Assembly (NCBI GenBank): GCA_029448655.1
Contig: JACCLO010000014.1
Location: 248,001-312,000, forward strand
Direction: 5' to 3'
DNA: 64,000 nt
Source: Wolfiporia cocos
Lineage: Eukaryota > Basidiomycota > Agaricomycetes > Polyporales > Phaeolaceae
Shown here: positions 9,671 through 61,025 of the stretch, piece by piece
Numbering within the stretch: position 1 is the first letter of the stretch
Layout: every line of letters starts with the position of its first letter
The notes under the pieces: generated by a model
Database searches by the model: none
What the model was told of the DNA's origin: nothing
Seen by the model: only the letters and a program-made list of their open reading frames with translations
Made by a program: the position numbers and the translations under genes

Positions 9671-10111
9671 AGATTGACATATGCCATTGAACGACAGATC
9701 TTACGGTAACGTTGCGTACATTGCGTACGTGTACGATTGCGTAACACGATTTCGTACGAGCAAGGGAGTTGCATCTAGAGTCATGCATATATTGTTGTGG
9801 TTAACGCGCTTATGGCGCTACGCTTCATTGCTGCCCTCTGTACCGCCACACTACCGTTTATGCGTCCATCCATACCCCTGCTTTTGATAAAATCATTGCA
9901 AATACGTTATACCTGTAGAAATTGGACTAGAACTCATTTTTGTGGCCGAGGTGAACAATTCCAGAAGAGGACCCCCCTTTTTGTGGCAAAAGCACCTTCT
10001 ACAGCCACACAGCAGCCAAGGCATATTGTGTGCCATCCACGTCAGGTTTTTCGTGTATATTGAACATGTTTTCACTGATGACGCAGCTTGCAACCGACTC
10101 CTTCTCGTCTT

Positions 10112-10645
10112 TGTTACGATCCGTATGAATCCGTATATTTTGACGCCTCACTGGAGAGGAGAACTTAGCGTCCAACCGCTGTATTGACCGATTATTCTTA
10201 GGGTCCCTGCTCAACCACCGACCCTCGTTTCATGTACAACAACCCTACGCCCCTAGTCTCATAGCGTATCAGGTTCTAGGTGATATCTGTTGTATATTTA
10301 CAGAGCTTCTACGTTTCAGCCATTGTTGCGCTCAACCGCAGCGTTTCGGCTTAGTTATCGTAGCGTACTAACCTTATGGACTTAGTGGTAGCAGTACCAA
10401 GGACACTATGACCCCGATTACAGAATCGTAGTATAAAGACCCTGTTGTAAATACTGGCCGAGTTCCTCAGCTCGACCTTGTTGAATTACAAGGATCCTAT
10501 ACTCGTTCTCAAAGGACTTAAGCAATTAAGTCTGCAGCCAGTATATCGACGCTCGACTCTGCTGAGTCCGACGAGTAGTGTACTACTCGATACGCTGAGT
10601 AACTCGACTTAACATCTCAGCTGAACGGATATTCGATCCGTAACA
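10112..10645 (+). repeat. 5' LTR, family A copy 1
   Basis: 534 bp, TGTTACGATCCG...GATCCGTAACA, with an inverted-repeat terminus of about 12 bp. Carries T at 10298. Contains TATAAAG at 10432-10438. Confidence 0.95.
10432..10479 (+). promoter_or_regulatory. LTR core promoter and predicted self-primer at transcript start
   Basis: TATAAAG at 10432-10438 is followed 37 nt later by AGCTCGACCTT at 10469-10479. That 11-mer is the exact reverse complement of AAGGTCGAGCT at 10647-10657, one base after the LTR. In Tf1 of fission yeast the first 11 nt of the mRNA fold back on the PBS and prime reverse transcription. The spacing here suggests the transcript starts at or near 10469. The same arrangement is in the family-B LTR. 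Confidence 0.6.
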
Positions 10646-10646
10646 G

Positions 10647-10657
10647 AAGGTCGAGCT
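10647..10657 (+). other. Primer-binding site, self-complementary to R
   Basis: AAGGTCGAGCT starts one base after the 5' LTR. It pairs over exactly 11 bases with 10469-10479 and the match stops on both sides. I did not recognise complementarity to a tRNA 3' end. Confidence 0.6.
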
Positions 10658-10690
10658 CTTAACAGACTCACTTACCAAGAGTGCAAGTCC

Positions 10691-12340
10691 ATGCAACGCT
10701 TTGACCTGGATCTCCCGAGCCGGTTGATCCATCTGCTCCCCGAAGAATACAGACGCATCTACTACGAAGACAAACTCGAGTGGAGAGATCCCCCCGCAGG
10801 GTTCTTTACGAAAGGAGGGTATCTCACCGTCCCGACTCCAGACAGACTTATTCCCTCGTGGGTACAGTTACCCCCATCCTCGAACGACCCCTGGGAGCAG
10901 ACGCGCGCCGCTTTCGAACGCTTCGGAAACGTCGCAAACTTGATGACACCGACCATCACCATATCTCGAACAGGCGATGGACAACTCGGAGGACAGACAA
11001 CGAACCCCAACCCTGCAGGAGGAAGCATGGGTCTGGGAGGTACAACCTTGGGCGGAAGTGCTGTTCCGGGAAGCAGCGGCACGAGCCAGGGCGCAGGGGG
11101 AGTGGCCAATATCCCTCCGCCAGTTAATAATCCGCTACCTGGAAATCCTAGCGGAACAAACCCCACCGGACCAGGAGCGTCTGGAGGAGGAGGAATTCCT
11201 GGAGGGGGAGGTCCCCCCGGGGGCGGAGGTCCCCCGGGCGGCACCGGTAATCCAGCAGGCGGCGCAGGAGGCAATCCAGGAGGACCGCCAGGCGGAGGAG
11301 GAGGACCACCAAGCGGAGGAGGCCCCCCAGGCGGAGGGAACCCCGCGGGATGGGGCGGGCAGTTCGCCCCACCAGGGCGAGGGAACCGCATAAAGCTCGC
11401 CACCCCCGAACCCTTCAAGGGAGAACGAAAGAAGCTACAACGCTTCAAGAATGATTGCAACACATGGTTCACCATGTTCGCGACAGACTATCAGACCGAC
11501 GATCAGAAAATCCTCTTCATCATGTCCTACATTCGAGGAAGCGACCGAGTAGACCAATGGAAGGAGAACTACTACGCCAAGCACACAGATCTGGCGACAG
11601 GAGCATTCGTCCTCCCCACGCTACTCCAGTTCAGTGCAGAATTCGACGCCGCATTCGAGCCCATCGAAGAGAAACAGAAAACCAATGACGATCTCTTCGA
11701 CCTCAGGCAGGAGAAGAAGAACATCGACGACTTCAATATTGAATTCGATAACCTCGTAGGGAAAACGGGACTGGACCGACAACAGTGCAACCCACTCCTC
11801 GTCACCTTGTACAAGAGAGCCATCCGACCCGCACCCGTTACGCATATCATAAATATTGTTCCCCCCGTCATAACCCTCACAGACTGGATGAAACAAGCAT
11901 CCATCAACGAGAACAATTATAACACGTTCATCAAAGGACGAGGAGACCCCAAGAAGAAACCCCAGTGGCGACCCAAGGGACCTAGCTCCCCAGCCACGCC
12001 GACTCCCGTGAAAGACCCGAACGCAATGGACGTTGACCGAATGTCCACGGAAGAGCGACGCAAGCTCCAAACTGAGGGGCGGTGCTTCAGTTGTAAGGAG
12101 AAGGGCCACCTCTCCAGCAACTGCCCAAAGCGAAAGAAGAAGTCTCCTGCGAAGGGCAAAACTCGAAAGGTAGAGGCCGTAGAGGAGGGGAACCCCGCCG
12201 CCCACACGGAAGAAGAAGACACCGAGGACGAGGACGATGGAGCCACCGCAGTGGAAGAAGCAGTTAACGCGATCAGGATTCTCAAAGCTAAGAACCCCTC
12301 GTTCCTTGCCCAGATTCTCGATGACCAGGATTTCGAATAG
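10691..12340 (+). CDS. gag: Gag polyprotein, family A copy 1 (549 aa)
   Basis: Begins with an ATG shortly after the PBS. Residues 1-90 (ending FERFGNVANL) are homologous to the gag remnant at 18681-18947. Residues ~95-235 are a Gly/Pro-rich low-complexity tract. Residues ~240-420 resemble the Ty3/Gypsy capsid (retrotransposon gag) region, with FNIEFDNLVGKTG. Near residue 475 lies a zinc knuckle, CFSCKEKGHLSSNC, a perfect CX2CX4HX4C, followed by a Lys-rich run and an acidic C terminus ending DDQDFE. Gag forms the particle and packages the RNA. The stop overlaps the pol frame by 16 nt. The proline-rich frames read on the opposite strand of the Gly/Pro tract are shadows. Confidence 0.92.
   Translation: MQRFDLDLPSRLIHLLPEEYRRIYYEDKLEWRDPPAGFFTKGGYLTVPTPDRLIPSWVQLPPSSNDPWEQTRAAFERFGNVANLMTPTITISRTGDGQLGGQTTNPNPAGGSMGLGGTTLGGSAVPGSSGTSQGAGGVANIPPPVNNPLPGNPSGTNPTGPGASGGGGIPGGGGPPGGGGPPGGTGNPAGGAGGNPGGPPGGGGGPPSGGGPPGGGNPAGWGGQFAPPGRGNRIKLATPEPFKGERKKLQRFKNDCNTWFTMFATDYQTDDQKILFIMSYIRGSDRVDQWKENYYAKHTDLATGAFVLPTLLQFSAEFDAAFEPIEEKQKTNDDLFDLRQEKKNIDDFNIEFDNLVGKTGLDRQQCNPLLVTLYKRAIRPAPVTHIINIVPPVITLTDWMKQASINENNYNTFIKGRGDPKKKPQWRPKGPSSPATPTPVKDPNAMDVDRMSTEERRKLQTEGRCFSCKEKGHLSSNCPKRKKKSPAKGKTRKVEAVEEGNPAAHTEEEDTEDEDDGATAVEEAVNAIRILKAKNPSFLAQILDDQDFE
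12328..12334 (+). promoter_or_regulatory. Candidate -1 ribosomal frameshift site, gag to pol
   Basis: GGATTTC just before the gag stop. The pol frame is closed by TGA at 12322-12324 and open from 12325, so only 16 nt (12325-12340) are available for the switch. Element C has GGATTTT at exactly the same place (62792-62798). The position is well fixed by the frames; the exact slip codons are inferred. Confidence 0.6.
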
Positions 12341-15300
12341 GGAGGAAGCGCACGGTCTTACCTCCCGAAAGCGCAGCTCATGTAATTACCTCGTATGAAC
12401 GCGACCGGTCGCTGTTTATCCCCGTAACCCTGAAGCTGCAGAAAGCCGTGAAAGTAAACGCCCTCATCGACTCGGGAGCCATGTCCTCCCTGATCCATTC
12501 AAAACTTGTCATTCGACACCGAATCGTGACTCGACCTCTAAGAAACCCAATCACCGTCCGGAACGTCGATGGAACCACCAACAAGGACGGACAGGTAGAT
12601 CGGGAAGTCTACCTTCCCATCAAATACGGAGGAAAGGAACGAAAAGTCCGCTTCCTCGTAGGAAACATCGGAAAAGAAGAAGTAATCCTCGGATACAATT
12701 GGTTGAAAAGGGAGAGCCCTGTCATCGATTGGGCAACAGGAAAGGTCGATATCGCCCCTGACAAACCAACAGAAAAAGCCCGAACGACCGACGCCATAAT
12801 CCAACTCGACACTGTCAAAATGACAGTAGCCCCCGAGGGGAAGCTCCCAACGCGGGGAACCGACGGTGCCATTGGATACGACCTATACGCCTCAAAGGAT
12901 GAGGAAATCACCCCTGGGGGATGGAAGGCGATCCCCACCGGGGTTCGGATGGAGATCCCGAAAGGATCTTACGGGAGGATAGCCTCACGATCGGGCCTCA
13001 CGCTCAAACACGGGCTCACGGTTGGGGCAGGAGTGATCGATCCTGACTATCGCGGAGAAGTCCAAGTCATCCTGTTCAACCAATCGACGACACCTCATCG
13101 TATCATTCCCGGAATGCGCATTGCGCAAATAATATTTGAACAAGCCCTCACCCCCGAAGTAGTCCAGGTAGAGGAGCTCGATGAAACAAGGAGAGGGGAT
13201 GCGGGCTTCGGCTCCACCGACACTCGGCAGCCAGTGGAGGATCCCATCTCAGACGAAGAATACCAACTACTCAGGAGATTTGTCCGGACCAAGAAACTGG
13301 TCGCCCCTAGAACCAGGAACCCAAGGCGATTCCGGCAGGAAAGCGCAGCCCTATCCCGCATACGCAAGGTAATGACGAAATCCCAGAAACTCTCCGAGAC
13401 AGAGAAAAGGGGGCCCACAGAGGACGCCCTCCCCGAACACCTGAAAGACTTCGCACACGTCTTCAGCAAGAAAGCCGCAGCCGCGTTTCCCCCTTCGAGA
13501 CCGTGGGACCATGCTATCGAACTAAAACCTGACTTCGTACCCCGGGACTGCAAGGTATACTCGCTGTCCCCCAGAGAACAAAAAGCCATGGACGAATTTC
13601 TGGCAGAAAATCTCACCAAGGGATTCATCCGACCATCAAAGTCCCCCATGGCGTCCCCCGCCTTCTTCGTCCCAAAGAAAGACGGAGGGCTAAGGCCCTG
13701 CCAGGACTACCGGTACCTAAACGAAGGAACGGTCAAGAACGCTTATCCCCTACCCCTGATATCCGAACTCATCGAGAAGCTAAGAGGGGCAAAGGTGTTC
13801 ACCAAAATGGACCTGCGAGCAGGATATAACAACGTACGGATCCGAGAAGGCGATCAATGGAAGGGCGCATTCAAAACCAATGCTGGCCTCTACGAACCAA
13901 CAGTAATGTTCTTCGGGATGTGCAATTCACCAGCAACGTTCCAGGCCATGATGAACGAGATACTGAAAGAGGAAATCACGGAAGGATGGGTATTAGTCTA
14001 CATGGACGACATCCTCATCTTCTCTCCAGACCAAACGACCCACAGAGAGCGAGAATGACGAGTCCTGCAAAAGCTGGCTGAAGAAAAGCTATTCGTGAAG
14101 CCCGAGAAATGCGCGTTCGGGGTAGAGAGGGTAGAGTTCCTTGGACTCGTAATCGCCCCCGGCCAAATCCAGATGGACCCCGCCAAGCTCAAAGGGATCC
14201 GCGACTGGCCACCCCCACGAAATGTCAAAGGGGTCCGCTCCTTCTTAGGGTTCGCGAACTTCTACAGAAAGTTCATCAACCACTATTCCACGCACGCGCG
14301 ACCGCTCATCGACCTCACAAAAACGGCAACGGGCACAGGGTTCAAGTGGACAGAACGAGAAAGCGAGGCGTTCGAATTCTTAAAAAGTCAGTTCGTAACA
14401 GCCCCCGCGCTGCTCCTCCCCGACAAAGAAAAACCCTTTATCCTGGAAACCGACGCCTCCCAGTTCGCCCTCGGAGCAGTGCTCAAACAAAAAGACGATA
14501 ACGGAAACGAGCGACCAGTGGGCTATCTATCACAGTCCCTCACCCCGGCCGAACGAAACTACGAAATCTACGATCGAGAACTCCTAGGAGTGGTTCGCGC
14601 GCTGGAAGAATGGCGCCACCTTCTAGAAGGGGGTCCACATCAGATCCTGATCAGGAGCGATCACCAGAACCTTACGTATTGGCGAAGCGCCCAGAGATTG
14701 AATCGGAGGCAAGCGAGATGGCACCTGTTACTATCTCAATTCGACATACGGCTACAGCACGTCCCAGGAAAGAAGTTGGTAATGGCAGACACCCTCTTGC
14801 GCCTCATGAATTTGGACAGCTCCGACCACGACAACGAAGACATTCTGATGCTGCCCGATACCCTATTCATTCACGCAATCGAAGTCCCGATCATCGATCG
14901 GATCAAGATCGCGAAGTCCTTCGATCCGATCGCGGAACAGGGACTCCGCGCCCTTGAACAAGGGGAACAGCCTCCTTTAAGGACAGTAATGGAAGACTGG
15001 CAGTACACCGAAGGGGTCCTCTTGTATAAGGGGCGGATGTACGTGCCACGGGACCCGGGCCTGAGAAAGGACGTTATCTCAAGATATCACGACCCAATAG
15101 CGGCAGGTCACCCCGGGATTTGGGGGACGACCCTGAAGGTGCAAGAGCACTTCTGGTGGCCCGACCTGCGAAAAACTGTGGCCGAATATGTCAAAGGCTG
15201 CGCCATCTGTCAGCAGATGAAACCCGACCGACATCCGACAAAGGCACCGCTGCAACCGATTCCGACCCGAAAAGACGCACTCCCCTTCTCACAATGCTCA

Positions 15301-16355
15301 GTGGACTTCATCACCGACCTCCCTCGGGTAGGGAAATATGATTCGGTTATGGTCATTGTCGATCATGGGCTGTCAAAGGCGATATCCCTGACCCCATGCG
15401 ATAAGACCATCACCAGCGAAGGAGCCGCCGACATATTCCACTGGAAAATCTACTCGAAGTACGGGCTCCCTAGGAAAATCATCTCGGACCGAGGCCCCCA
15501 GTTCACCTCGAAGTTTTTCCAAGCTCTCTGCAAGCTTCTAGGGATCGACTCCGCCCTGAGTACGGCGTATCACCCACAAACCGACGGACAGACTGAGCGA
15601 ATGAACCAACAAATAGAAGTCTACCTGCGTATCTACTGCATGAGCGACCCGTACCTCTGGGCCGCCAGACTCCCAGATGTAGAATTTGCCCACAACACGC
15701 GCAGGACCGAAAGAGGTTTGGCCCCCACCGAAGTCATCATGGGGTATATTCCCCGGGGATTGCCCGAAGAAGACAACCCGACATCGGTGCCAGCCGCGGG
15801 AGAAAGGCTGAAAAGCATCAAAGAGGCAAGGGAGAAGGCTATCGCCGCGCACGAACTAGCCCAAAAACGAATGGCCGGACGGACCCTGCGCGATTTGCCT
15901 AAACTTAGCAGGGGAGACAAGGTGTGGCTTGATGCCAAGAACCTCCACCTCCCGTACGAATCACGGAAGCTCGCTCCAAAAAGGGAGGGGCCGTTCACCA
16001 TCGCCGAGAAGCTTGGGGCCGTCACGTACAGGCTGGCTCTGCCCCCGCGGTGGAAGATACACCCGGTCTTCCATGCCTCGCTACTGAAACCGTTCAATGA
16101 GACAAGGGTGCACGGGCCCAATTACACGAAGCCACCCCCGGACCTGGTCGAAGGGCACAAAGAGTACGAGGTCGATTCTATCCTAAACCAAAGGCAACAT
16201 CGAGGGAAAAGGCAGTATTTGGTCCATTGGAAGGGCTACCCAACCGCTGACGACTCGTGGGAAGACGCAACGAACTTGAAGAATTCCCCCGACCTCCTGG
16301 AGGACTACAAAAGTCGGCGGAGGGGGAGCAGAACCCGCCAGGTCGAAGAAGTAAC

Positions 16356-17429
16356 ATGTCGACGCCTCCGCCTAGCCAACCCGACCGTCCCAGGGCGCCG
16401 ACGCTGCGTCGGTCCCTCGCCGTCCGCATGGGATACCAGACAGGCAGGTGTTACGGGTGTTCCGAGGAGGCTCACCTCCGCACCCGCCATGCGCTCACCT
16501 GGCACAGGTCCGACGTTCCCCCCGGAGGTTATCCAACCCCCTGGACCGATCGATTTGAGCTCGTACAGGAGCTCACCGCCATCTACGACAGCTATCAAGA
16601 CGTCACCGAGCGGCTTGTCCAACTCGAACGGACAGTCCGCTGGCAGAGACAGCAGCTTGGGCGGAACATCGATCAGTGGATCGACCACCTCGGGGCGTCG
16701 ACGCCATCGCGAATCCGGAGAGAGTTCAACCAAGGAGAAGAAGGCCCGCGTCGCCCGCCCCGTCAGCGAAGCCCCGTCCCTCCAATGCCCTCCTGGCTAC
16801 TCGACGACGATGAATTGGCTCGAATTGCAGAACCGTACGATTTTATGGAATACCGCTCTCTGGTACCTGACCACGCTCCCCCTGAGACCTCCGCCGCAGG
16901 AGCTCGACCTGGAGAACCGGAGGGCCCTGCTCCTCATCCACGAAGCAGCGAACGACGCCCAGTTCGAGAGGGGCCGAGCAGCGCTAGAATTGCCACCCCG
17001 CCGCTCACTGCCCCAGCTGACGACGAAGCTGGTCGACGATCTCCGTCAATTGAGGTCATCAGCCGAGAGGAGTTCGAGCGGGGTCGCGACGCCTGGAACG
17101 ACCCCCTTCTCAGTCTACCTAGATGGCTCCGGGAGCGCATCTGGGTCCACCACCACCACCAGCGGTACGAATCCGGCGACTATCTCCGCGACGTCCCCTC
17201 CGCTCGATCCCCGCCCAGGCCATCTCAGGCAGAGCCCTGTCGAAGCTGTGGCAGCCCCTACCACTGGATCCTCGACTGCCCCGACTACCGCTGCCCCACG
17301 TGTCGGGTATCCCAGCCCGGACATCAACGAGGGGAATGCGCGCCCTACCAGCTCTGGGTCCCTCCCGCCACGCCTCCTCTCCCCGATGGAGATGCAGGGT
17401 ATAACGACCCCGACCCCGAGGCCCTTTGA
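16356..17429 (+). CDS. ORF3, zinc-knuckle protein overlapping the 3' end of pol (357 aa)
   Basis: Starts at an ATG (MSTPPPSQP) just after the chromodomain; its frame is open from 16251. It lies one base back from pol, as pol lies one base back from gag. The protein has CYGCSEEAHLRTRH near its N terminus, a probable coiled coil (LVQLERTVRWQRQQLG), a Pro/Arg-rich middle and two knuckles near the C terminus. CRSCGSPYHWILDC is a perfect CX2CX4HX4C and CPTCRVSQPGHQRGEC is CX2CX6HX4C. These ordered motifs argue that this frame, rather than the low-complexity pol extension, encodes the functional product. Role unknown; nucleic-acid binding is the obvious guess. It sits where env would be in errantiviruses but shows no signal or membrane segment. 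Confidence 0.65.
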   Translation: MSTPPPSQPDRPRAPTLRRSLAVRMGYQTGRCYGCSEEAHLRTRHALTWHRSDVPPGGYPTPWTDRFELVQELTAIYDSYQDVTERLVQLERTVRWQRQQLGRNIDQWIDHLGASTPSRIRREFNQGEEGPRRPPRQRSPVPPMPSWLLDDDELARIAEPYDFMEYRSLVPDHAPPETSAAGARPGEPEGPAPHPRSSERRPVREGPSSARIATPPLTAPADDEAGRRSPSIEVISREEFERGRDAWNDPLLSLPRWLRERIWVHHHHQRYESGDYLRDVPSARSPPRPSQAEPCRSCGSPYHWILDCPDYRCPTCRVSQPGHQRGECAPYQLWVPPATPPLPDGDAGYNDPDPEAL

Positions 17430-17471
17430 GTGGCCGTGATGCTTGGATTTCATCGAGGGCGATGACGGCTT

Positions 17472-17484
17472 AGGAGGGGGGTGA
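17472..17484 (+). other. Polypurine tract
   Basis: AGGAGGGGGGTGA directly abuts the 3' LTR at 17485. This is the expected plus-strand primer, with a single T near its end. The mirror copy is at 53301-53313. Confidence 0.8.
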
Positions 17485-18018
17485 TGTTACGATCCGTATG
17501 AATCCGTATATTTTGACGCCTCACTGGAGAGGAGAACTTAGCGTCCAACCGCTGTATTGACCGATTATTCTTAGGGTCCCTGCTCAACCACCGACCCTCG
17601 TTTCATGTACAACAACCCTACGCCCCTAGTCTCATAGCGTATCAGGTTCTAGGTGATATCTGTTGTATATCTACAGAGCTTCTACGTTTCAGCCATTGTT
17701 GCGCTCAACCGCAGCGTTTCGGCTTAGTTATCGTAGCGTACTAACCTTATGGACTTAGTGGTAGCAGTACCAAGGACACTATGACCCCGATTACAGAATC
17801 GTAGTATAAAGACCCTGTTGTAAATACTGGCCGAGTTCCTCAGCTCGACCTTGTTGAATTACAAGGATCCTATACTCGTTCTCAAAGGACTTAAGCAATT
17901 AAGTCTGCAGCCAGTATATCGACGCTCGACTCTGCTGAGTCCGACGAGTAGTGTACTACTCGATACGCTGAGTAACTCGACTTAACATCTCAGCTGAACG
18001 GATATTCGATCCGTAACA
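17485..18018 (+). repeat. 3' LTR, family A copy 1
   Basis: 534 bp. It differs from its own 5' LTR by C at 17671 where the 5' LTR has T. It matches copy 2's 5' LTR at that base instead. Confidence 0.95.
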
Positions 18019-18379
18019 TCATGTACTTACCATCGAGGCTCTTCAGCTCGACCTTGTTGTATAAACAAGAAGTCTTATACTCGTTCTCAAACGTAGGAGA
18101 CTACGCTCAGTATTTCTCTCTCGAGCAACCGAACGACTAAGTCCTCGAAGTGCACACTGACTTCTCGGACTTAGGCGAGTCTTATATTCTATTAGACTCG
18201 CACCAGAACAGATTCTATCCTCTAACGCGTATTGGATATTATACGATCTCCTAGGAACTTCACCTAGGACCTGAAGGCATCTAACGAGCATTTGCCTTGC
18301 ATACGGCTATACGCCCACGTGCAGAAGAACGATCTATATTCGCGACTCGAATATACGAACGGGTATTCGACCCGTAACA
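18019..18379 (+). repeat. 3' half of a split family-B solo LTR
   Basis: Begins TCATGTACTTACCATCGAGG and ends GGGTATTCGACCCGTAACA. It matches the 3' half of the intact family-B LTR at 20011-20718. GAGGT follows at 18380-18384. Its 5' half is 42 kb away at 60674-61025, followed by ACCTC, the complement of GAGGT. The break is exactly where the family-A element sits. Confidence 0.85.
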
Positions 18380-18384
18380 GAGGT

Positions 18385-18675
18385 TCAGAGTGTAACTGAG
18401 GGACTCGCCCCAATGCCGATGATAATCGAACTGAGGTAGTAAGACCTCAGCGAGTAGGTTTATATACATGGGGAGACAACGCGCTACTATGTAAGTACTG
18501 CCCTAAAGGCATGGGCCGTGCGCTATCTATCATGTGCCCCAGTAGATACCATGTGACCTACTTATCATGTGACCGTATGTCCTGGCGGACGAGTACGCTA
18601 TATACCACTACACTACCGGGCACCAGTCATGTGACTACTAGAACGTGAAGTCCTGGGTTCGAGCCAGGGAGGGGT
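18385..18675 (-). repeat. Putative displaced promoter part of element C's LTR
   Basis: Read on the minus strand it has an LTR-like promoter (TATATAAACC near 18460). If the inversion is undone it joins the leader of element C at 61026, interrupted only by the GAGGT-flanked family-B LTR. A diverged relative lies near 23225-23365. The outer boundary is not resolved. Confidence 0.45.
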
Positions 18676-18680
18676 AATAC

Positions 18681-20718: not shown

Positions 20719-20723
20719 CGGCC

Positions 20724-51870: not shown

Positions 51871-51881
51871 GTCCCTCGTCA

Positions 51882-52200: not shown

Positions 52201-52766
52201 CAATCTACCTATATTCATGCTCCCCCCATGCCTGCTCCCTGTCCCTACTCCCTGCCCCTAATCCCCATTGCGGAAAACTGTCAGTTTTCCGCATGTTCAT
52301 AGAATCGTCTTGCATTCTGCAGTATATGAATGAGTATTTTTAGGATATTTCAGAGTGATGAAATACATACCAGTCTGTTCACCGTAGCGGTTACATCTCA
52401 CAATAAGAACAGTTGCATACTAACTAAATGTAAGTAGACAAGACAAAACTAAAAACTAACAACTTAAGTACTTATGCGCACAGGTGGTCATCCACTCATG
52501 TGTGGTCATTTAGCTCCTCTTGAAGGGATGGAGTTGCCTCGCCAAGACCTGGAGACCAACTGGATGTGAGAAAAGCACAGGAGAAGACAAAATAGAGATA
52601 GACTGCACCGTGCCATGAGCCCGTTTATGTGTAGCGAAATAAGGTTCAAGGGGCGACAGAATAGTGAATGAACCTAAAACGAAGTCATGAAATGACGTGA
52701 TGATACTGCGAGTTCAGGTAGAAGCGTTACCATAAATGGATTGTGGCTAAGGTGTGATGTGAAGAC
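52201..52766. other. Non-coding flank left of family-A copy 2
   Basis: No gene recognised. It ends in AAGAC (52762-52766), the complement of GTCTT found left of copy 1. If the inversion is real, this DNA was once continuous with 10111 and leftward. Confidence 0.5.
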
Positions 52767-53300
52767 TGTTACGGATCGAATATCCGTTCAGCTGAGATGT
52801 TAAGTCGAGTTACTCAGCGTATCGAGTAGTACACTACTCGTCGGACTCAGCAGAGTCGAGCGTCGATATACTGGCTGCAGACTTAATTGCTTAAGTCCTT
52901 TGAGAACGAGTATAGGATCCTTGTAATTCAACAAGGTCGAGCTGAGGAACTCGGCCAGTATTTACAACAGGGTCTTTATACTACGATTCTGTAATCGGGG
53001 TCATAGTGTCCTTGGTACTGCTACCACTAAGTCCATAAGGTTAGTACGCTACGATAACTAAGCCGAAACGCTGCGGTTGAGCGCAACAATGGCTGAAACG
53101 TAGAAGCTCTGTAAATATACAACAGATATCACCTAGAACCTGATACGCTATGAGACTAGGGGCGTAGGGTTGTTGTACATGAAACGAGGGTCGGTGGTTG
53201 AGCAGGGACCCTAAGAATAATCGGTCAATACAGCGGTTGGACGCTAAGTTCTCCTCTCCAGTGAGGCGTCAAAATATACGGATTCATACGGATCGTAACA
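52767..53300 (-). repeat. 3' LTR, family A copy 2
   Basis: 534 bp. It has the T-type base at the variable site (A at 53114 on +), like copy 1's 5' LTR. Confidence 0.95.
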
Positions 53301-53345
53301 TCACCCCCCTCCTAAGCCGTCATCGCCCTCGATGAAATCCAAGCA

Positions 53346-56300
53346 TCACGGCCACTCAAAGGGCCTCGGGGTCGGGGTCGTTATACCCTGCATCTCCATC
53401 GGGGAGAGGAGGCGTGGCGGGAGGGACCCAGAGCTGGTAGGGCGCGCATTCCCCTCGTCGATGTCCGGGCTGGGATACCCGACACGTGGGGCAGCGGTAG
53501 TCGGGGCAGTCGAGGATCCAGTGGTAGGGGCTGCCACAGCTTCGACAGGGCTCTGCCTGAGATGGCCTGGGCGGGGATCGAGCGGAGGGGACGTCGCGGA
53601 GATAGTCGCCGGATTCGTACCGCTGGTGGTGGTGGTGGACCCAGATGCGCTCCCGGAGCCATCTAGGTAGACTGAGAAGGGGGTCGTTCCAGGCGTCGCG
53701 ACCCCGCTCGAACTCCTCTCGGCTGATGACCTCAATTGACGGAGATCGTCGACCAGCTTCGTCGTCAGCTGGGGCAGTGAGCGGCGGGGTGGCAATTCTA
53801 GCGCTGCTCGGCCCCTCTCGAACTGGGCGTCGTTCGCTGCTTCGTGGATGAGGAGCAGGGCCCTCCGGTTCTCCAGGTCGAGCTCCTGCGGCGGAGGTCT
53901 CAGGGGGAGCGTGGTCAGGTACCAGAGAGCGGTATTCCATAAAATCGTACGGTTCTGCAATTCGAGCCAATTCATCGTCGTCGAGTAGCCAGGAGGGCAT
54001 TGGAGGGACGGGGCTTCGCTGACGGGGCGGGCGACGCGGGCCTTCTTCTCCTTGGTTGAACTCTCTCCGGATTCGCGATGGCGTCGACGCCCCGAGGTGG
54101 TCGATCCACTGATCGATGTTCCGCCCAAGCTGCTGTCTCTGCCAGCGGACTGTCCGTTCGAGTTGGACAAGCCGCTCGGTGACGTCTTGATAGCTGTCGT
54201 AGATGGCGGTGAGCTCCTGTACGAGCTCAAATCGATCGGTCCAGGGGGTTGGATAACCTCCGGGGGGAACGTCGGACCTGTGCCAGGTGAGCGCATGGCG
54301 GGTGCGGAGGTGAGCCTCCTCGGAACACCCGTAACACCTGCCTGTCTGGTATCCCATGCGGACGGCGAGGGACCGACGCAGCGTCGGCGCCCTGGGACGG
54401 TCGGGTTGGCTAGGCGGAGGCGTCGACATGTTACTTCTTCGACCTGGCGGGTTCTGCTCCCCCTCCGCCGACTTTTGTAGTCCTCCAGGAGGTCGGGGGA
54501 ATTCTTCAAGTTCGTTGCGTCTTCCCACGAGTCGTCAGCGGTTGGGTAGCCCTTCCAATGGACCAAATACTGCCTTTTCCCTCGATGTTGCCTTTGGTTT
54601 AGGATAGAATCGACCTCGTACTCTTTGTGCCCTTCGACCAGGTCCGGGGGTGGCTTCGTGTAATTGGGCCCGTGCACCCTTGTCTCATTGAACGGTTTCA
54701 GTAGCGAGGCATGGAAGACCGGGTGTATCTTCCACCGCGGGGGCAGAGCCAGCCTGTACGTGACGGCCCCAAGCTTCTCGGCGATGGTGAACGGCCCCTC
54801 CCTTTTTGGAGCGAGCTTCCGTGATTCGTACGGGAGGTGGAGGTTCTTGGCATCAAGCCACACCTTGTCTCCCCTGCTAAGTTTAGGCAAATCGCGCAGG
54901 GTCCGTCCGGCCATTCGTTTTTGGGCTAGTTCGTGCGCGGCGATAGCCTTCTCCCTTGCCTCTTTGATGCTTTTCAGCCTTTCTCCCGCGGCTGGCACCG
55001 ATGTCGGGTTGTCTTCTTCGGGCAATCCCCGGGGAATATACCCCATGATGACTTCGGTGGGGGCCAAACCTCTTTCGGTCCTGCGCGTGTTGTGGGCAAA
55101 TTCTACATCTGGGAGTCTGGCGGCCCAGAGGTACGGGTCGCTCATGCAGTAGATACGCAGGTAGACTTCTATTTGTTGGTTCATTCGCTCAGTCTGTCCG
55201 TCGGTTTGTGGGTGATACGCCGTACTCAGGGCGGAGTCGATCCCTAGAAGCTTGCAGAGAGCTTGGAAAAACTTCGAGGTGAACTGGGGGCCTCGGTCCG
55301 AGATGATTTTCCTAGGGAGCCCGTACTTCGAGTAGATTTTCCGGTGGAATATGTCGGCGGCTCCTTCGCTGGTGATGGTCTTATCGCATGGGGTCAGGGA
55401 TATCGCCTTTGACAGCCCATGATCGACAATGACCATAACCGAATCATATTTCCCTACCCGGGGGAGGTCGGTGATGAAGTCCACTGAGCATTGTGAGAAG
55501 GGGAGTGCGTCTTTTCGGGTCGGAATCGGTTGCAGCGGCGCCTTTGTCGGATGTCGGTCGGGTTTCATCTGCTGACAGATGGCGCAGCCTTTGACATATT
55601 CGGCCACAGTTTTTCGCAGGTCGGGCCACCAGAAGTGCTCTTGCACCTTCAGGGTCGTCCCCCAAATCCCGGGGTGACCTGCCGCTATTGGGTCGTGATA
55701 TCTTGAGATAACGTCCTTTCTCAGGCCCGGGTCCCGTGGCACGTACATCCGCCCCTTATACAAGAGGACCCCTTCGGTGTACTGCCAGTCTTCCATTACT
55801 GTCCTTAAAGGAGGCTGTTCCCCTTGTTCAAGGGCGCGGAGTCCCTGTTCCGCGATCGGATCGAAGGACTTCGCGATCTTGATCCGATCGATGATCGGGA
55901 CTTCGATTGCGTGAATGAATAGGGTATCGGGCAGCATCAGAATGTCTTCGTTGTCGTGGTCGGAGCTGTCCAAATTCATGAGGCGCAAGAGGGTGTCTGC
56001 CATTACCAACTTCTTTCCTGGGACGTGCTGTAGCCGTATGTCGAATTGAGATAGTAACAGGTGCCATCTCGCTTGCCTCCGATTCAATCTCTGGGCGCTT
56101 CGCCAATACGTAAGGTTCTGGTGATCGCTCCTGATCAGGATCTGATGTGGACCCCCTTCTAGAAGGTGGCGCCATTCTTCCAGCGCGCGAACCACTCCTA
56201 GGAGTTCTCGATCGTAGATTTCGTAGTTTCGTTCGGCCGGGGTGAGGGACTGTGATAGATAGCCCACTGGTCGCTCGTTTCCGTTATCGTCTTTTTGTTT

Positions 56301-58460
56301 GAGCACTGCTCCGAGGGCGAACTGGGAGGCGTCGGTTTCCAGGATAAAGGGTTTTTCTTTGTCGGGGAGGAGCAGCGCGGGGGCTGTTACGAACTGACTT
56401 TTTAAGAATTCGAACGCCTCGCTTTCTCGTTCTGTCCACTTGAACCCTGTGCCCGTTGCCGTTTTTGTGAGGTCGATGAGCGGTCGCGCGTGCGTGGAAT
56501 AGTGGTTGATGAACTTTCTGTAGAAGTTCGCGAACCCTAAGAAGGAGCGGACCCCTTTGGCATTTCGTGGGGGTGGCCAGTCGCGGATCCCTTTGAGCTT
56601 GGCGGGGTCCATCTGGATTTGGCCGGGGGCGATTACGAGTCCAAGGAACTCTACCCTCTCTACCCCGAACGCGCATTTCTCGGGCTTCACGAATAGCTTT
56701 TCTTCAGCCAGCTTTTGCAGGACTCGTCGCTCTCGCTCTCTGTGGGTCGTTTGGTCTGGAGAGAAGATGAGGATGTCGTCCATGTAGACTAATACCCATC
56801 CTTCCGCGATTTCCTCTTTCAGTATCTCGTTCATCATGGCCTGGAACGTTGCTGGTGAATTGCACATCCCGAAGAACATTACTGTTGGTTCGTAGAGGCC
56901 AGCATTGGTTTTGAATGCGCCCTTCCATTGATCGCCTTCTCGGATCCGTACGTTGTTATATCCTGCTCGCAGGTCCATTTTGGTGAACACCTTTGCCCCT
57001 CTTAGCTTCTCGATGAGTTCGGATATCAGGGGTAGGGGATAAGCGTTCTTGACCGTTCCTTCGTTTAGGTACCGGTAGTCCTGGCAGGGCCTTAGCCCTC
57101 CGTCTTTCTTTGGGACGAAGAAGGCGGGGGACGCCATGGGGGACTTTGATGGTCGGATGAATCCCTTGGTGAGATTTTCTGCCAGAAATTCGTCCATGGC
57201 TTTTTGTTCTCTGGGGGACAGCGAGTATACCTTGCAGTCCCGGGGTACGAAGTCAGGTTTTAGTTCGATAGCATGGTCCCACGGTCTCGAAGGGGGAAAC
57301 GCGGCTGCGGCTTTCTTGCTGAAGACGTGTGCGAAGTCTTTCAGGTGTTCGGGGAGGGCGTCCTCTGTGGGCCCCCTTTTCTCTGTCTCGGAGAGTTTCT
57401 GGGATTTCGTCATTACCTTGCGTATGCGGGATAGGGCTGCGCTTTCCTGCCGGAATCGCCTTGGGTTCCTGGTTCTAGGGGCGACCAGTTTCTTGGTCCG
57501 GACAAATCTCCTGAGTAGTTGGTATTCTTCGTCTGAGATGGGATCCTCCACTGGCTGCCGAGTGTCGGTGGAGCCGAAGCCCGCATCCCCTCTCCTTGTT
57601 TCATCGAGCTCCTCTACCTGGACTACTTCGGGGGTGAGGGCTTGTTCAAATATTATTTGCGCAATGCGCATTCCGGGAATGATACGATGAGGTGTCGTCG
57701 ATTGGTTGAACAGGATGACTTGGACTTCTCCGCGATAGTCAGGATCGATCACTCCTGCCCCAACCGTGAGCCCGTGTTTGAGCGTGAGGCCCGATCGTGA
57801 GGCTATCCTCCCGTAAGATCCTTTCGGGATCTCCATCCGAACCCCGGTGGGGATCGCCTTCCATCCCCCAGGGGTGATTTCCTCATCCTTTGAGGCGTAT
57901 AGGTCGTATCCAATGGCACCGTCGGTTCCCCGCGTTGGGAGCTTCCCCTCGGGGGCTACTGTCATTTTGACAGTGTCGAGTTGGATTATGGCGTCGGTCG
58001 TTCGGGCTTTTTCTGTTGGTTTGTCAGGGGCGATATCGACCTTTCCTGTTGCCCAATCGATGACAGGGCTCTCCCTTTTCAACCAATTGTATCCGAGGAT
58101 TACTTCTTCTTTTCCGATGTTTCCTACGAGGAAGCGGACTTTTCGTTCCTTTCCTCCGTATTTGATGGGAAGGTAGACTTCCCGATCTACCTGTCCGTCC
58201 TTGTTGGTGGTTCCATCGACGTTCCGGACGGTGATTGGGTTTCTTAGAGGTCGAGTCACGATTCGGTGTCGAATGACAAGTTTTGAATGGATCAGGGAGG
58301 ACATGGCTCCCGAGTCGATGAGGGCGTTTACTTTCACGGCTTTCTGCAGCTTCAGGGTTACGGGGATAAACAGCGACCGGTCGCGTTCATACGAGGTAAT
58401 TACATGAGCTGCGCTTTCGGGAGGTAAGACCGTGCGCTTCCTCCCTATTCGAAATCCTGG
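53346..58460 (-). CDS. pol: Pol polyprotein, family A copy 2, open
   Basis: Open for ~1,704 codons after the -1 shift near 58451-58457. Domains in order: protease DSG 58316-58308; dUTPase ~57941-57563 with all five motifs; RT with YMDD 56786-56775; RNase H; integrase with HHCC and DD35E; chromodomain ~54620-54465; then the long Ser/Thr/Pro-rich extension. At the site of copy 1's stop it has CGA (Arg). Replacements noticed relative to copy 1 are EEIAEGW/EEITEGW, RNAKG/RNVKG, FHRKI/FHWKI and DIDEG/DINEG. The protease should cut the polyprotein. dUTPase would keep uracil out of the cDNA. The integrase chromodomain probably targets chromatin marks, as in other chromoviruses. Confidence 0.93.
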   Translation of the reverse strand, partial: PGFRIGRKRTVLPPESAAHVITSYERDRSLFIPVTLKLQKAVKVNALIDSGAMSSLIHSKLVIRHRIVTRPLRNPITVRNVDGTTNKDGQVDREVYLPIKYGGKERKVRFLVGNIGKEEVILGYNWLKRESPVIDWATGKVDIAPDKPTEKARTTDAIIQLDTVKMTVAPEGKLPTRGTDGAIGYDLYASKDEEITPGGWKAIPTGVRMEIPKGSYGRIASRSGLTLKHGLTVGAGVIDPDYRGEVQVILFNQSTTPHRIIPGMRIAQIIFEQALTPEVVQVEELDETRRGDAGFGSTDTRQPVEDPISDEEYQLLRRFVRTKKLVAPRTRNPRRFRQESAALSRIRKVMTKSQKLSETEKRGPTEDALPEHLKDFAHVFSKKAAAAFPPSRPWDHAIELKPDFVPRDCKVYSLSPREQKAMDEFLAENLTKGFIRPSKSPMASPAFFVPKKDGGLRPCQDYRYLNEGTVKNAYPLPLISELIEKLRGAKVFTKMDLRAGYNNVRIREGDQWKGAFKTNAGLYEPTVMFFGMCNSPATFQAMMNEILKEEIAEGWVLVYMDDILIFSPDQTTHRERERRVLQKLAEEKLFVKPEKCAFGVERVEFLGLVIAPGQIQMDPAKLKGIRDWPPPRNAKGVRSFLGFANFYRKFINHYSTHARPLIDLTKTATGTGFKWTERESEAFEFLKSQFVTAPALLLPDKEKPFILETDASQFALGAVLKQKDDNGNERPVGYLSQSLTPAERNYEIYDRELLGVVRALEEWRHLLEGGPHQILIRSDHQNLTYWRSAQRLNRRQARWHLLLSQFDIRLQHVPGKKLVMADTLLRLMNLDSSDHDNEDILMLPDTLFIHAIEVPIIDRIKIAKSFDPIAEQGLRALEQGEQPPLRTVMEDWQYTEGVLLYKGRMYVPRDPGLRKDVISRYHDPIAAGHPGIWGTTLKVQEHFWWPDLRKTVAEYVKGCAICQQMKPDRHPTKAPLQPIPTRKDALPFSQCSVDFITDLPRVGKYDSVMVIVDHGLSKAISLTPCDKTITSEGAADIFHRKIYSKYGLPRKIISDRGPQFTSKFFQALCKLLGIDSALSTAYHPQTDGQTERMNQQIEVYLRIYCMSDPYLWAARLPDVEFAHNTRRTERGLAPTEVIMGYIPRGLPEEDNPTSVPAAGERLKSIKEAREKAIAAHELAQKRMAGRTLRDLPKLSRGDKVWLDAKNLHLPYESRKLAPKREGPFTIAEKLGAVTYRLALPPRWKIHPVFHASLLKPFNETRVHGPNYTKPPPDLVEGHKEYEVDSILNQRQHRGKRQYLVHWKGYPTADDSWEDATNLKNSPDLLEDYKSRRRGSRTRQVEEVTCRRLRLANPTVPGRRRCVGPSPSAWDTRQAGVTGVPRRLTSAPAMRSPGTGPTFPPEVIQPPGPIDLSSYRSSPPSTTAIKTSPSGLSNSNGQSAGRDSSLGGTSISGSTTSGRRRHRESGESSTKEKKARVARPVSEAPSLQCPPGYSTTMNWLELQNRTILWNTALWYLTTLPLRPPPQELDLENRRALLLIHEAANDAQFERGRAALELPPRRSLPQLTTKLVDDLRQLRSSAERSSSGVATPGTTPFSVYLDGSGSASGSTTTTSGTNPATISATSPPLDPRPGHLRQSPVEAVAAPTTGSSTAPTTAAPRVGYPSPDIDEGNARPTSSGSLPPRLLSPMEMQGITTPTPRPFEWP
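53356..54429 (-). CDS. ORF3 zinc-knuckle protein, copy 2 (357 aa)
   Basis: Same frame relation, start and length as 16356-17429, with both CCHC-type knuckles kept. One base difference from copy 1 changes both frames at once: Arg/Gln in ORF3 (QPGHRRGEC against QPGHQRGEC) and Asp/Asn in the pol extension. Confidence 0.65.
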   Translation of the reverse strand: MSTPPPSQPDRPRAPTLRRSLAVRMGYQTGRCYGCSEEAHLRTRHALTWHRSDVPPGGYPTPWTDRFELVQELTAIYDSYQDVTERLVQLERTVRWQRQQLGRNIDQWIDHLGASTPSRIRREFNQGEEGPRRPPRQRSPVPPMPSWLLDDDELARIAEPYDFMEYRSLVPDHAPPETSAAGARPGEPEGPAPHPRSSERRPVREGPSSARIATPPLTAPADDEAGRRSPSIEVISREEFERGRDAWNDPLLSLPRWLRERIWVHHHHQRYESGDYLRDVPSARSPPRPSQAEPCRSCGSPYHWILDCPDYRCPTCRVSQPGHRRGECAPYQLWVPPATPPLPDGDAGYNDPDPEAL

Positions 58461-60094
58461 TCATCGAGAATCTGGGCAAGGAACAAGGGGTTCTTAGCTT
58501 TGAGAATCCTGATCGCGTTAACTGCTTCTTCCACTGCGGTGGCTCCATCGTCCTCGTCCTCGGTGTCTTCTTCTTCCGTGTGGGCGGCGGGGTTCCCCTC
58601 CTCTACGGCCTCTACCTTTCGAGTTTTGCCCTTCGCAGGAGACTTCTTCTTTCGCTTTGGGCAGTTGCTGGAGAGGTGGCCCTTCTCCTTACAACTGAAG
58701 CACCGCCCCTCAGTTTGGAGCTTGCGTCGCTCTTCCGTGGACATTCGGTCAACGTCCATTGCGTTCGGGTCTTTCACGGGAGTCGGCGTGGCTGGGGAGC
58801 TAGGTCCCTTGGGTCGCCACTGGGGTTTCTTCTTGGGGTCTCCTCGTCCTTTGATGAACGTGTTATAATTGTTCTCGTTGATGGATGCTTGTTTCATCCA
58901 GTCTGTGAGGGTTATGACGGGGGGAACAATATTTATGATATGCGTAACGAGTGCGGGTCGGATGGCTCTCTTGTACAAGGTGACGAGGAGTGGGTTGCAC
59001 TGTTGTCGGTCCAGTCCCGTTTTCCCTACGAGGTTATCGAATTCAATATTGAAGTCGTCGATGTTCTTCTTCTCCTGCCTGAGGTCGAAGAGATCGTCAT
59101 TGGTTTTCTGTTTCTCTTCGATGGGCTCGAATGCGGCGTCGAATTCTGCACTGAACTGGAGTAGCGTGGGGAGGACGAATGCTCCTGTCGCCAGATCTGT
59201 GTGCTTGGCGTAGTAGTTCTCCTTCCATTGGTCTACTCGGTCGCTTCCTCGAATGTAGGACATGATGAAGAGGATTTTCTGATCGTCGGTCTGATAGTCT
59301 GTCGCGAACATGGTGAACCATGTGTTGCAATCATTCTTGAAGCGTTGTAGCTTCTTTCGTTCTCCCTTGAAGGGTTCGGGGGTGGCGAGCTTTATGCGGT
59401 TCCCTCGCCCTGGTGGGGCGAACTGCCCGCCCCATCCCGCGGGGTTCCCTCCGCCTGGGGGGCCTCCTCCGCTTGGTGGTCCTCCTCCTCCGCCTGGCGG
59501 TCCTCCTGGATTGCCTCCTGCGCCGCCTGCTGGATTACCGGTGCCGCCCGGGGGACCTCCGCCCCCGGGGGGACCTCCCCCTCCAGGAATTCCTCCTCCT
59601 CCAGACGCTCCTGGTCCGGTGGGGTTTGTTCCGCTAGGATTTCCAGGTAGCGGATTATTAACTGGCGGAGGGATATTGGCCACTCCCCCTGCGCCCTGGC
59701 TCGTGCCGCTGCTTCCCGGAACAGCACTTCCGCCCAAGGTTGTACCTCCCAGACCCATGCTTCCTCCTGCAGGGTTGGGGTTCGTTGTCTGTCCTCCGAG
59801 TTGTCCATCGCCTGTTCGAGATATGGTGATGGTCGGTGTCATCAAGTTTGCGACGTTTCCGAAGCGTTCGAAAGCGGCGCGCGTCTGCTCCCAGGGGTCG
59901 TTCGAGGATGGGGGTAACTGTACCCACGAGGGAATAAGTCTGTCTGGAGTCGGGACGGTGAGATACCCTCCTTTCGTAAAGAACCCTGCGGGGGGATCTC
60001 TCCACTCGAGTTTGTCTTCGTAGTAGATGCGTCTGTATTCTTCGGGGAGCAGATGGATCAACCGGCTCGGGAGATCCAGGTCAAAGCGTTGCAT
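58445..60094 (-). CDS. gag: Gag polyprotein, family A copy 2 (549 aa)
   Basis: Same layout as copy 1: conserved N-terminal domain, Gly/Pro tract, capsid region, CFSCKEKGHLSSNC knuckle, acidic tail. Two replacements noticed: RPALVTH for RPAPVTH and NPLFLAQ for NPSFLAQ, both C to T at the DNA level. Confidence 0.92.
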   Translation of the reverse strand: MQRFDLDLPSRLIHLLPEEYRRIYYEDKLEWRDPPAGFFTKGGYLTVPTPDRLIPSWVQLPPSSNDPWEQTRAAFERFGNVANLMTPTITISRTGDGQLGGQTTNPNPAGGSMGLGGTTLGGSAVPGSSGTSQGAGGVANIPPPVNNPLPGNPSGTNPTGPGASGGGGIPGGGGPPGGGGPPGGTGNPAGGAGGNPGGPPGGGGGPPSGGGPPGGGNPAGWGGQFAPPGRGNRIKLATPEPFKGERKKLQRFKNDCNTWFTMFATDYQTDDQKILFIMSYIRGSDRVDQWKENYYAKHTDLATGAFVLPTLLQFSAEFDAAFEPIEEKQKTNDDLFDLRQEKKNIDDFNIEFDNLVGKTGLDRQQCNPLLVTLYKRAIRPALVTHIINIVPPVITLTDWMKQASINENNYNTFIKGRGDPKKKPQWRPKGPSSPATPTPVKDPNAMDVDRMSTEERRKLQTEGRCFSCKEKGHLSSNCPKRKKKSPAKGKTRKVEAVEEGNPAAHTEEEDTEDEDDGATAVEEAVNAIRILKAKNPLFLAQILDDQDFE

Positions 60095-60127
60095 GGACTT
60101 GCACTCTTGGTAAGTGAGTCTGTTAAG

Positions 60128-60138
60128 AGCTCGACCTT
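60128..60138 (-). other. Primer-binding site, copy 2
   Basis: On the minus strand AAGGTCGAGCT starts one base after the 5' LTR (60140-60673). It is complementary to AGCTCGACCTT at the predicted transcript start inside that LTR. Confidence 0.6.
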
Positions 60139-60139
60139 C

Positions 60140-60673
60140 TGTTACGGATCGAATATCCGTTCAGCTGAGATGTTAAGTCGAGTTACTCAGCGTATCGAGT
60201 AGTACACTACTCGTCGGACTCAGCAGAGTCGAGCGTCGATATACTGGCTGCAGACTTAATTGCTTAAGTCCTTTGAGAACGAGTATAGGATCCTTGTAAT
60301 TCAACAAGGTCGAGCTGAGGAACTCGGCCAGTATTTACAACAGGGTCTTTATACTACGATTCTGTAATCGGGGTCATAGTGTCCTTGGTACTGCTACCAC
60401 TAAGTCCATAAGGTTAGTACGCTACGATAACTAAGCCGAAACGCTGCGGTTGAGCGCAACAATGGCTGAAACGTAGAAGCTCTGTAGATATACAACAGAT
60501 ATCACCTAGAACCTGATACGCTATGAGACTAGGGGCGTAGGGTTGTTGTACATGAAACGAGGGTCGGTGGTTGAGCAGGGACCCTAAGAATAATCGGTCA
60601 ATACAGCGGTTGGACGCTAAGTTCTCCTCTCCAGTGAGGCGTCAAAATATACGGATTCATACGGATCGTAACA
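60140..60673 (-). repeat. 5' LTR, family A copy 2
   Basis: 534 bp. It has the C-type base (G at 60487 on +), like copy 1's 3' LTR. Confidence 0.95.
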
Positions 60674-61025
60674 CATGAGTTTTTATACTACGCTAGGTTT
60701 CAGGGGTCAAGTCTGTCCCAGATGCCACCGATACTATCTACGCTATAGTCCCAAACGTTTGATAAGTATGGAGTGATATATCTGAGACGATAGATAGGAA
60801 TGATGGCGGTTGAACGCCATCTGTTAGCTAATAAACGATGAACATGAAACGGTGGCAGGGTTGGATCTGCCAAAGATGAAACGAGCCCTACAGACTAGTA
60901 CAACTGGGGACGCGCCCAGTAAGATCACGAGTAGCCAGGGGAGTTGGTTGCGCAACAAGTCCCTGTATCGTATTTGCCCAGTGGTGAGTTCTGTCGATAT
61001 TCGAAAAATTAGAATAACCGTAACA
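60674..61025 (-). repeat. 5' half of the split family-B solo LTR
   Basis: CATGAGTTTTTATACTACGC...CCGTAACA matches 19352-19699, the 5' half of the LTR read on minus. ACCTC follows at 61026-61030, the complement of GAGGT found after the other half at 18380-18384. Confidence 0.85.

What the first reader, a model, noticed from the sequence alone, without database searches (positions are those of the whole stretch)
10107..60678. Crosswise-swapped target duplications: the 34.7 kb between two inverted retroelements has been flipped
Copy 1 has GTCTT at 10107-10111 and TCATG at 18019-18023. Copy 2 has AAGAC (= GTCTT complement) at 52762-52766 and CATGA (= TCATG complement) at 60674-60678. Neither element has matching flanks, but each flank has its partner at the other element. 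Ectopic crossover between two inverted copies gives exactly this pattern and inverts 18019-52766. An assembler choosing the wrong orientation for a segment between 7.9 kb inverted repeats would give the same pattern, so biology and artefact are not separated by sequence alone.
Basis: seen in the sequence. Interest (0 to 1): 0.92.

Follow-up and report, generated by a model that had tools for sequence, protein, structure and literature searches.

The report
Chromosome segment flipped between retrotransposon copies
Two nearly identical retrotransposons lying in opposite directions in a medicinal mushroom's genome appear to have recombined and flipped the roughly 35 kb of DNA between them, by a mechanism known from other organisms, and a second copy pair in the same genome shows the same footprint.

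Summary
Two 7,907-bp Ty3/gypsy chromovirus copies (10112-18018 +, 52767-60673 -; 12 differences) carry crosswise 5-bp target duplications, GTCTT and TCATG. Three further lines agree. (1) The only LTR difference (position 187) is crosswise too, so each parental element had identical LTRs. (2) Both targets are repeats; rejoining the crosswise flanks gives sequences that match uninterrupted copies end to end, while the as-written joins match one half at a time. (3) Three paralogous genes become co-oriented when the segment is flipped back.

In the same genome 17 of 23 full-length copies have matching duplications. Four of the six misfits form two crosswise inverted pairs: this one, and one 93 kb apart on another contig with its own crosswise LTR difference.

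Assembly statistics match the published homokaryotic Wolfiporia hoelen SS20 assembly (about 330x PacBio, mean read about 14 kb), so on average about 100 or more reads should span each element. A real crossover inversion is therefore more likely than an assembly flip, but no reads were available. The mechanism is known (Drosophila Galileo). This is a well-documented new case of a known kind.

The parts
10112..18018 (+). Copy 1: full-length Ty3/gypsy chromovirus, a hybrid of element A (5' side) and element B (3' side)
52767..60673 (-). Copy 2: full-length copy of the same family in opposite orientation, a hybrid of B (5' side) and A (3' side)
10112..10645 (+). 5' LTR of copy 1; identical (534/534) to the 3' LTR of copy 2; allele T at 10298
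17485..18018 (+). 3' LTR of copy 1; identical (534/534) to the 5' LTR of copy 2; allele C at 17671
60140..60673 (-). 5' LTR of copy 2; allele C (element strand) at 60487
52767..53300 (-). 3' LTR of copy 2; allele T (element strand) at 53114
10107..10111 (+). Target duplication of A, left copy (GTCTT)
52762..52766 (-). Target duplication of A, other copy (AAGAC on +), now at copy 2
18019..18023 (+). Target duplication of B (TCATG), now at copy 1
60674..60678 (-). Target duplication of B, other copy (CATGA on +)
9536..10111 (+). One half of the repeat into which A inserted
51900..52766 (-). Other half of the repeat into which A inserted; rejoined to 9536-10111 it matches three uninterrupted paralogues over 1,438 of 1,438 bases (93.6-97.4%)
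18019..18384 (+). One half of the repeat into which B inserted
60674..61026 (-). Other half of the repeat into which B inserted; rejoined, it matches intact copies in the window
18988..19700 (-). Uninterrupted copy of B's target repeat (94.6% over all 714 bases of the rejoined site)
20011..20718 (+). Second uninterrupted copy of B's target repeat (92.1% over 708 of the 714 bases)
18019..52766 (.). Segment between the copies, inverted relative to the arrangement when the elements inserted
5810..7116 (+). Member of a local gene family, outside the flipped segment
48289..49555 (-). Paralogue inside the segment (74% to 5810-7116, inverted); same orientation once flipped back
50195..51076 (-). Third paralogue inside the segment (68% to 5810-7116, inverted)

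Best explanation
Element A inserted into one repeat (5-bp duplication GTCTT) and element B into another (TCATG), in opposite orientation on one chromosome. Later the two nearly identical elements recombined at matching positions, somewhere between element positions 187 and 7560. One crossover exchanged their 3' parts and inverted everything between them. Shown: crosswise target duplications, crosswise LTR alleles, crosswise halves of both target repeats, and inverted copies. Inferred: that it was one homologous crossover, that it happened in the fungus rather than in the assembler, and where inside the element it fell.
For: TSDs crosswise. LTR position 187 crosswise, with 0 of 534 differences within each reconstructed parental element. 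Rejoined empty sites A and B match uninterrupted repeats across the junction, whereas the as-written joins match only one half at a time. Three paralogous genes become co-oriented when the segment is flipped back. TSDs match in 17 of 23 full-length copies and 6 of 6 solo LTRs, so the family normally leaves matching duplications. A second crosswise inverted pair exists, C75:542876-550782(+) and C75:644071-651977(-), with TSDs CATAG/CACTA, LTR position 386 crosswise and paralogues spanning both rejoined sites. Both crosswise pairs fall among the 13 same-contig inverted pairs of 253 possible pairs. The matching published assembly used 1,497,235 PacBio reads, 21.02 Gb; by convexity alone, on average at least 119 reads should span each element plus 500 bp on both sides, or 96 with 1 kb. 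The copies keep 10 non-LTR differences through the interior (largest gap 1,884 bp), so adjacent differences are linkable by single reads.
Against: No reads, Hi-C map or second strain could be examined here. The published assembly is 64.44 Mb against a k-mer estimate of 70.2-77.3 Mb, so some repeats may be missing or collapsed, and contig C27 ends inside a copy of this family. A one-base LTR mismatch is not special by itself: 4 of the 9 TSD-matched copies compared have 1 or 2 LTR differences; only the crosswise identity is telling, and it rests on one site per pair. Two of six misfit copies have no partner found. The species identification rests on matching statistics and one gene. The crossover point cannot be located: polarising the 12 sites with 12 other copies does not phase A against B.
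Confidence: 0.86

Rival explanations
1. Assembly flip: the true chromosome still has the uninverted order, and the assembler joined the 34.7-kb segment the wrong way round through two 7.9-kb inverted repeats that are 99.85% identical.
For: Gives exactly the same footprint. The crosswise pairs are among the three most similar same-contig inverted pairs in the 14 copies compared (6, 8 and 12 differences), where an assembler would err most easily. The matching published assembly was made from PacBio subreads by Falcon and is smaller than its k-mer estimate.
Against: On average about 100 or more reads should span each element with anchors. Seventeen of 23 copies, including three that span 16.9-17.9 kb between their outer LTR ends, have matching TSDs. 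Element C75:558308-566214, inverted to C75:542876-550782 with only 8 differences and 7.5 kb away, has matching TSDs, and so do both members of an inverted pair on C76 about 98 kb apart with 22 differences. Two independent flips would be needed.
Confidence: 0.1
2. Both orientations coexist: the inverted pair recombines repeatedly during mycelial growth and the assembly shows one isomer of a mixed population of nuclei.
For: Near-identical inverted copies allow it, and two pairs show the footprint. In Marasmius oreades, TE-related deletions and one inversion were found in monokaryotic protoclones (passages).
Against: Nothing here shows a second orientation. Searches with 4600-10111 and 44000-52766 gave no second copy of the locus among the 40 candidates scored in each; the rest of the segment was not searched.
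Confidence: 0.03
3. No crossover: both elements inserted without making normal duplications, or flanks changed later, and the matches are coincidence.
For: Two other full-length copies of the family have unmatched flanks with no partner found.
Against: Chance of the double 5-mer match about 1e-6 per pair. The repeat halves and LTR alleles match crosswise too.
Confidence: 0.01

Closest known systems
Galileo-generated inversion 2z3 of Drosophila buzzatii (PMC2775673; passages read)
   Same: Two copies of one TE in opposite orientation at the two breakpoints, exchanged target duplications, both copies chimeric; read there as ectopic recombination.
   Different: [quoted passage not shown] The non-inverted chromosome was sequenced there; here only paralogous empty sites are available. 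Here the element is a 7.9-kb LTR retrotransposon in a basidiomycete and chimerism is shown by LTR alleles.
Inter-element recombination between LTR retrotransposons that makes a copy's two LTRs mismatch (REANNOTATE paper, PMC2672092; passages read)
   Same: Hybrid elements whose two LTRs come from different insertions, which invalidates LTR dating.
   Different: The passages discuss detection in general; here both reciprocal products and their flanks are present.
TE-related inversion and deletions in protoclones of Marasmius oreades (PMC9674265; passages read)
   Same: Rearrangement at TE copies in a mushroom; some deletions there are put down to non-allelic homologous recombination between copies.
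   Different: There the inversion involved hAT copies with loss of the middle sequence; here a balanced inversion with crosswise TSDs.
Ty3/gypsy chromoviruses (Pfam domains; the family definition is recalled)
   Same: Aspartyl protease, RT, RNase H, integrase and a C-terminal chromodomain, in that order; 5-bp target duplications.
   Different: A dUTPase domain lies between protease and RT; whether this is common in fungal relatives was not checked.

Membership tests
Inversion by ectopic recombination between inverted TE copies | Two homologous copies in opposite orientation at the two breakpoints | tested here: met
   7,907 bp each, 12 differences, inverted
Inversion by ectopic recombination between inverted TE copies | Target duplications exchanged between the copies | tested here: met
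   GTCTT and TCATG crosswise
Inversion by ectopic recombination between inverted TE copies | Both copies chimeric | tested here: met
   LTR position 187 alleles crosswise; this rests on one variable LTR site
Inversion by ectopic recombination between inverted TE copies | Single uninterrupted target at each breakpoint in a non-inverted chromosome | tested here: inconclusive
   Paralogous uninterrupted repeats match the rejoined sites A and B; the orthologous uninverted chromosome was not available
Inversion by ectopic recombination between inverted TE copies | Junctions physically present in the organism | not testable with these tools
   Needs reads or PCR
Ty3/gypsy chromovirus | RT and RNase H before integrase, with a chromodomain at the end | tested here: met
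   RVT_1 408-568, RNase H 634-765, integrase zinc-binding and core 870-1043, Chromo 1240-1290 of the 1,663-aa frame of copy 2
Ty3/gypsy chromovirus | TG..CA LTR ends and 5-bp target duplications | tested here: met
   Matching 5-bp flanks in 17 of 23 full-length copies and 6 of 6 solo LTRs

The most novel reading that the evidence does not exclude
Near-identical copies of this chromovirus cluster locally: 7 of 14 compared copies have their closest relative within 150 kb on the same contig (permutation p 0.0004), although the copies checked have their own target duplications. If copies land near their source, or convert each other locally, the family keeps setting up near-identical inverted pairs, and two of these have already flipped 35- and 93-kb segments. 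It would then be a standing generator of local inversions, possibly with both orientations present in one mycelium.
Probability: 0.15. Interest if true: 0.65.

Novelty: new member of a known kind. Interest (0 to 1): 0.45.

Why it matters
The case carries unusually complete evidence from one genome: crosswise target duplications, crosswise LTR alleles and four rejoinable insertion sites over two pairs. It gives a method that needs only an assembly: look for crosswise TSDs among misfit copies to find retroelement-made inversions or assembly flips. It also shows that a 1/534 LTR mismatch used to date such copies can come from recombination, not age. If the junctions hold in reads, one young family has made at least two inversions in this fungus.

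Tried and rejected
Locating the crossover: the 12 differing sites were polarised with 12 other full-length copies of the 21 others found. Copy 1 carries the rarer state at 9 sites (at two of these, 3867 and 5135, one other copy shares it) and copy 2 at 3, but nothing phases A against B inside the element, so only the LTR-bounded interval stands.

Partners for the two orphan misfits (C6:1154484-1162388, 5' CAACC / 3' GGATG; C75:3201824-3209730, 5' AGCGC / 3' CATGG): one outer flank each was read for the partial copies on C2 and C11 (5') and C27 (3'), and none fits; for those on C8 and C13 the bases read were internal, so their outer flanks were not seen. Flank searches for the C6 orphan gave no paralogue joining both flanks among the candidates scored (7 of 7 and 40 of 548); the C75 orphan's flanks were not searched. 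Deletion between direct copies would leave such orphans, but this was not tested.

A second haplotype in the assembly: searches with 4600-10111 and 44000-52766 found only the locus itself and repeat or paralogue matches among the 40 candidates scored in each.

Paper searches for the genome size with '64.43 Mb' and '64.4 Mb' found nothing; the match came through a weak Wolfiporia gag hit. The word 'inversion' occurs 0 times in the main text of either Wolfiporia genome paper looked through. Searches listed no title or abstract start reporting this event; most of the listed papers were not opened. Passages of PMC12510652 and PMC10085805 were looked at and not used.
Full report
OBSERVATION. Copy 1 is 10112-18018 (+), copy 2 is 52767-60673 (-). 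They align over 7,907 bases with 12 substitutions, all transitions, and no gaps. Copy 1 has GTCTT before and TCATG after. Copy 2, read in its own direction, has TCATG before and GTCTT after. Using 5-mer frequencies of the window, a crosswise double match has a chance of about 1.2e-6 for one pair and about 3e-4 over 253 pairs.

INDEPENDENT LINE 1, LTR ALLELES. Each copy's two LTRs differ at one site, position 187. The 5' LTR of copy 1 is identical to the 3' LTR of copy 2 (T), and the 3' LTR of copy 1 is identical to the 5' LTR of copy 2 (C), 534 of 534 both times. LTRs are expected to be identical at insertion (established knowledge). So the parental elements were A (T/T, GTCTT) and B (C/C, TCATG), and both present copies are hybrids. 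The switch lies between element positions 187 and 7560. A caution: a within-copy LTR mismatch alone proves little, since 4 of the 9 TSD-matched copies compared have 1 or 2 differences; the crosswise identity is what counts.

INDEPENDENT LINE 2, EMPTY SITES. A's flanks are two halves of a multi-copy repeat. In the three uninterrupted paralogues compared (C56, C23 and C45; loci L014-L016) the rejoined site, with GTCTT once, matches over 1,438 of 1,438 bases at 97.4, 96.5 and 93.6%. B's rejoined site (714 bases) matches the uninterrupted repeat at 18988-19700 end to end at 94.6%, and 20011-20718 at 92.1% over 708 bases; two more copies in locus L012 match at 90.3 and 89.3% over 709. The joins as written in the assembly match these repeats only one half at a time. 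These halves are hundreds of bases long, so coincidence is excluded.

INDEPENDENT LINE 3, GENES. Three related genes lie at 5810-7116 (+), 48289-49555 (-) and about 50195-51082 (-); the two inside the segment are inverted to the one outside. Flipping the segment back puts all three in one direction. Two relatives at C6:450778-453784 lie on one strand, one after the other. No Pfam family was found for the open frame at 6383-7033 inside the first.

FAMILY SURVEY. Searching LTR start and end patterns with up to 3 mismatches gave 55 and 54 places, which resolve by hand into 23 full-length copies, 6 solo LTRs and 5 partial copies. Matching 5-bp duplications: 17 of 23 full-length and 6 of 6 solo; the partial copies were not scored (two of the full-length matches, C67:783463 and C75:1870457, were read by eye from the printout). 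More diverged members would be missed by the patterns. Of the six misfits, two are the window copies, and two are C75:542876-550782 (+) and C75:644071-651977 (-). That second pair has TSDs CATAG and CACTA crosswise, 6 differences in 7,907, and its one LTR difference (position 386, A/C) crosswise. Its CATAG site, rejoined over 200 bases, matches all six paralogues fetched across the junction at 96.0-98.5%. Its CACTA site has one diverged paralogue spanning the junction (78.8% over 339 aligned columns). The last two misfits have no partner among the copies found.

REAL OR ARTEFACT. The genome holding the window has 64,431,438 bases in 76 contigs, with a longest contig seen of 5,289,744. The contig numbers fit an alphabetical listing of size-sorted names (inference); on that reading N50 is 3,762,476. 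The published homokaryotic Wolfiporia hoelen SS20 assembly has 64.44 Mb, 78 contigs, longest 5.29 Mb, N50 3.76 Mb (PMC9503964; abstract, sections 2.3, 3.1 and 4.1 and passages seen). A hand-spliced GMC oxidoreductase from the window is 93% identical (over 63% of the query in the best local alignment) to a Wolfiporia cocos protein; the next listed is 67%. I infer that this is that assembly. It used 1,497,235 PacBio reads (21.02 Gb, 20-kb library, Falcon), a mean of 14.04 kb. The expected number of reads covering an element plus 500 bp on each side is then at least 119 for any length distribution with that mean, assuming even placement; with 1 kb anchors, 96. Repeated passes of one molecule would lower the independent number. 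The homokaryotic strain is given 0.01% heterozygosity, so a mixture of two nuclei is unlikely. Near-identical inverted neighbours with intact TSDs (C75:558308, 8 differences from C75:542876 and 7.5 kb away; the C76 pair, 22 differences) show that the assembly did not scramble every such pair. Against this, the assembly is smaller than its k-mer estimate of 70.2-77.3 Mb, contig C27 ends inside a copy of the family, and I had no reads. I put a real inversion at 0.86 and an assembly flip at 0.1.

MECHANISM. One crossover between homologous positions of two inverted copies on one chromosome gives exactly this outcome: balanced inversion, swapped duplications, hybrid elements. Aberrant integration or independent insertion would not be expected to restore both empty sites crosswise (inference). 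Each reconstructed parental element has 0 of 534 LTR differences, so both insertions and the inversion are young; with recalled rates of 1e-9 to 1e-8 per site per year the 95% upper limit is about 2.8 to 0.3 million years (rates recalled, worked by hand, from no call).

COMPARISON. The Drosophila buzzatii 2z3 paper states the same criteria: opposite orientation, exchanged TSDs, chimeric copies (PMC2775673, passages). I found no report of this event in the searches made, which cover open-licence papers only. It is a new member of a known kind.

EXTRA. Among 14 full-length copies whose sequence I held (of 23; taken from the best LTR hits), 7 have their nearest relative by sequence within 150 kb (permutation p 0.0004) and 9 on the same contig (p 0.00001). 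Against this, C6:180371 lies about 70 kb from copy 1 yet differs at 93 sites. Different target duplications rule out simple segmental duplication for these pairs. Local landing or local conversion would explain it; neither was tested.

Noticed in passing
G000 C75:542876-550782 and C75:644071-651977 (loci L022, L021): A second crosswise inverted pair of the same family about 93 kb apart, with its own crosswise LTR allele and rejoinable insertion sites; a third close copy (C75:558308, matched TSD) lies between them.
   Followed up: yes
14 full-length copies in G000, loci L017-L028 and the window: The most similar copies lie close together on the same contig more often than chance (7 of 14 within 150 kb, p 0.0004), though with separate target duplications.
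   Followed up: partly
G000 C6:1154484-1162388 (L020) and C75:3201824-3209730: Two full-length copies with unmatched TSDs and no partner found; they could be products of deletion between direct copies or of translocation.
   Followed up: partly
window 53346-58337 (-): The pol frame carries a dUTPase domain between protease and reverse transcriptase.
   Followed up: no
window 10112-18018 versus 52767-60673: All 12 differences between the copies are transitions, several at CG dinucleotides, as deamination of methylated C would give; the pol frame is one open frame in copy 2 and split in copy 1.
   Followed up: no
window 61185-62804 (+): A second, different gag-like open frame (Retrotrans_gag, zinc knuckle) just outside the right breakpoint.
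   Followed up: no
G000 C27:132716-135554 (L034): This 135.6-kb contig ends inside a copy of the family (element positions 5068-7907 present), so the assembler did stop at one copy.
   Followed up: yes
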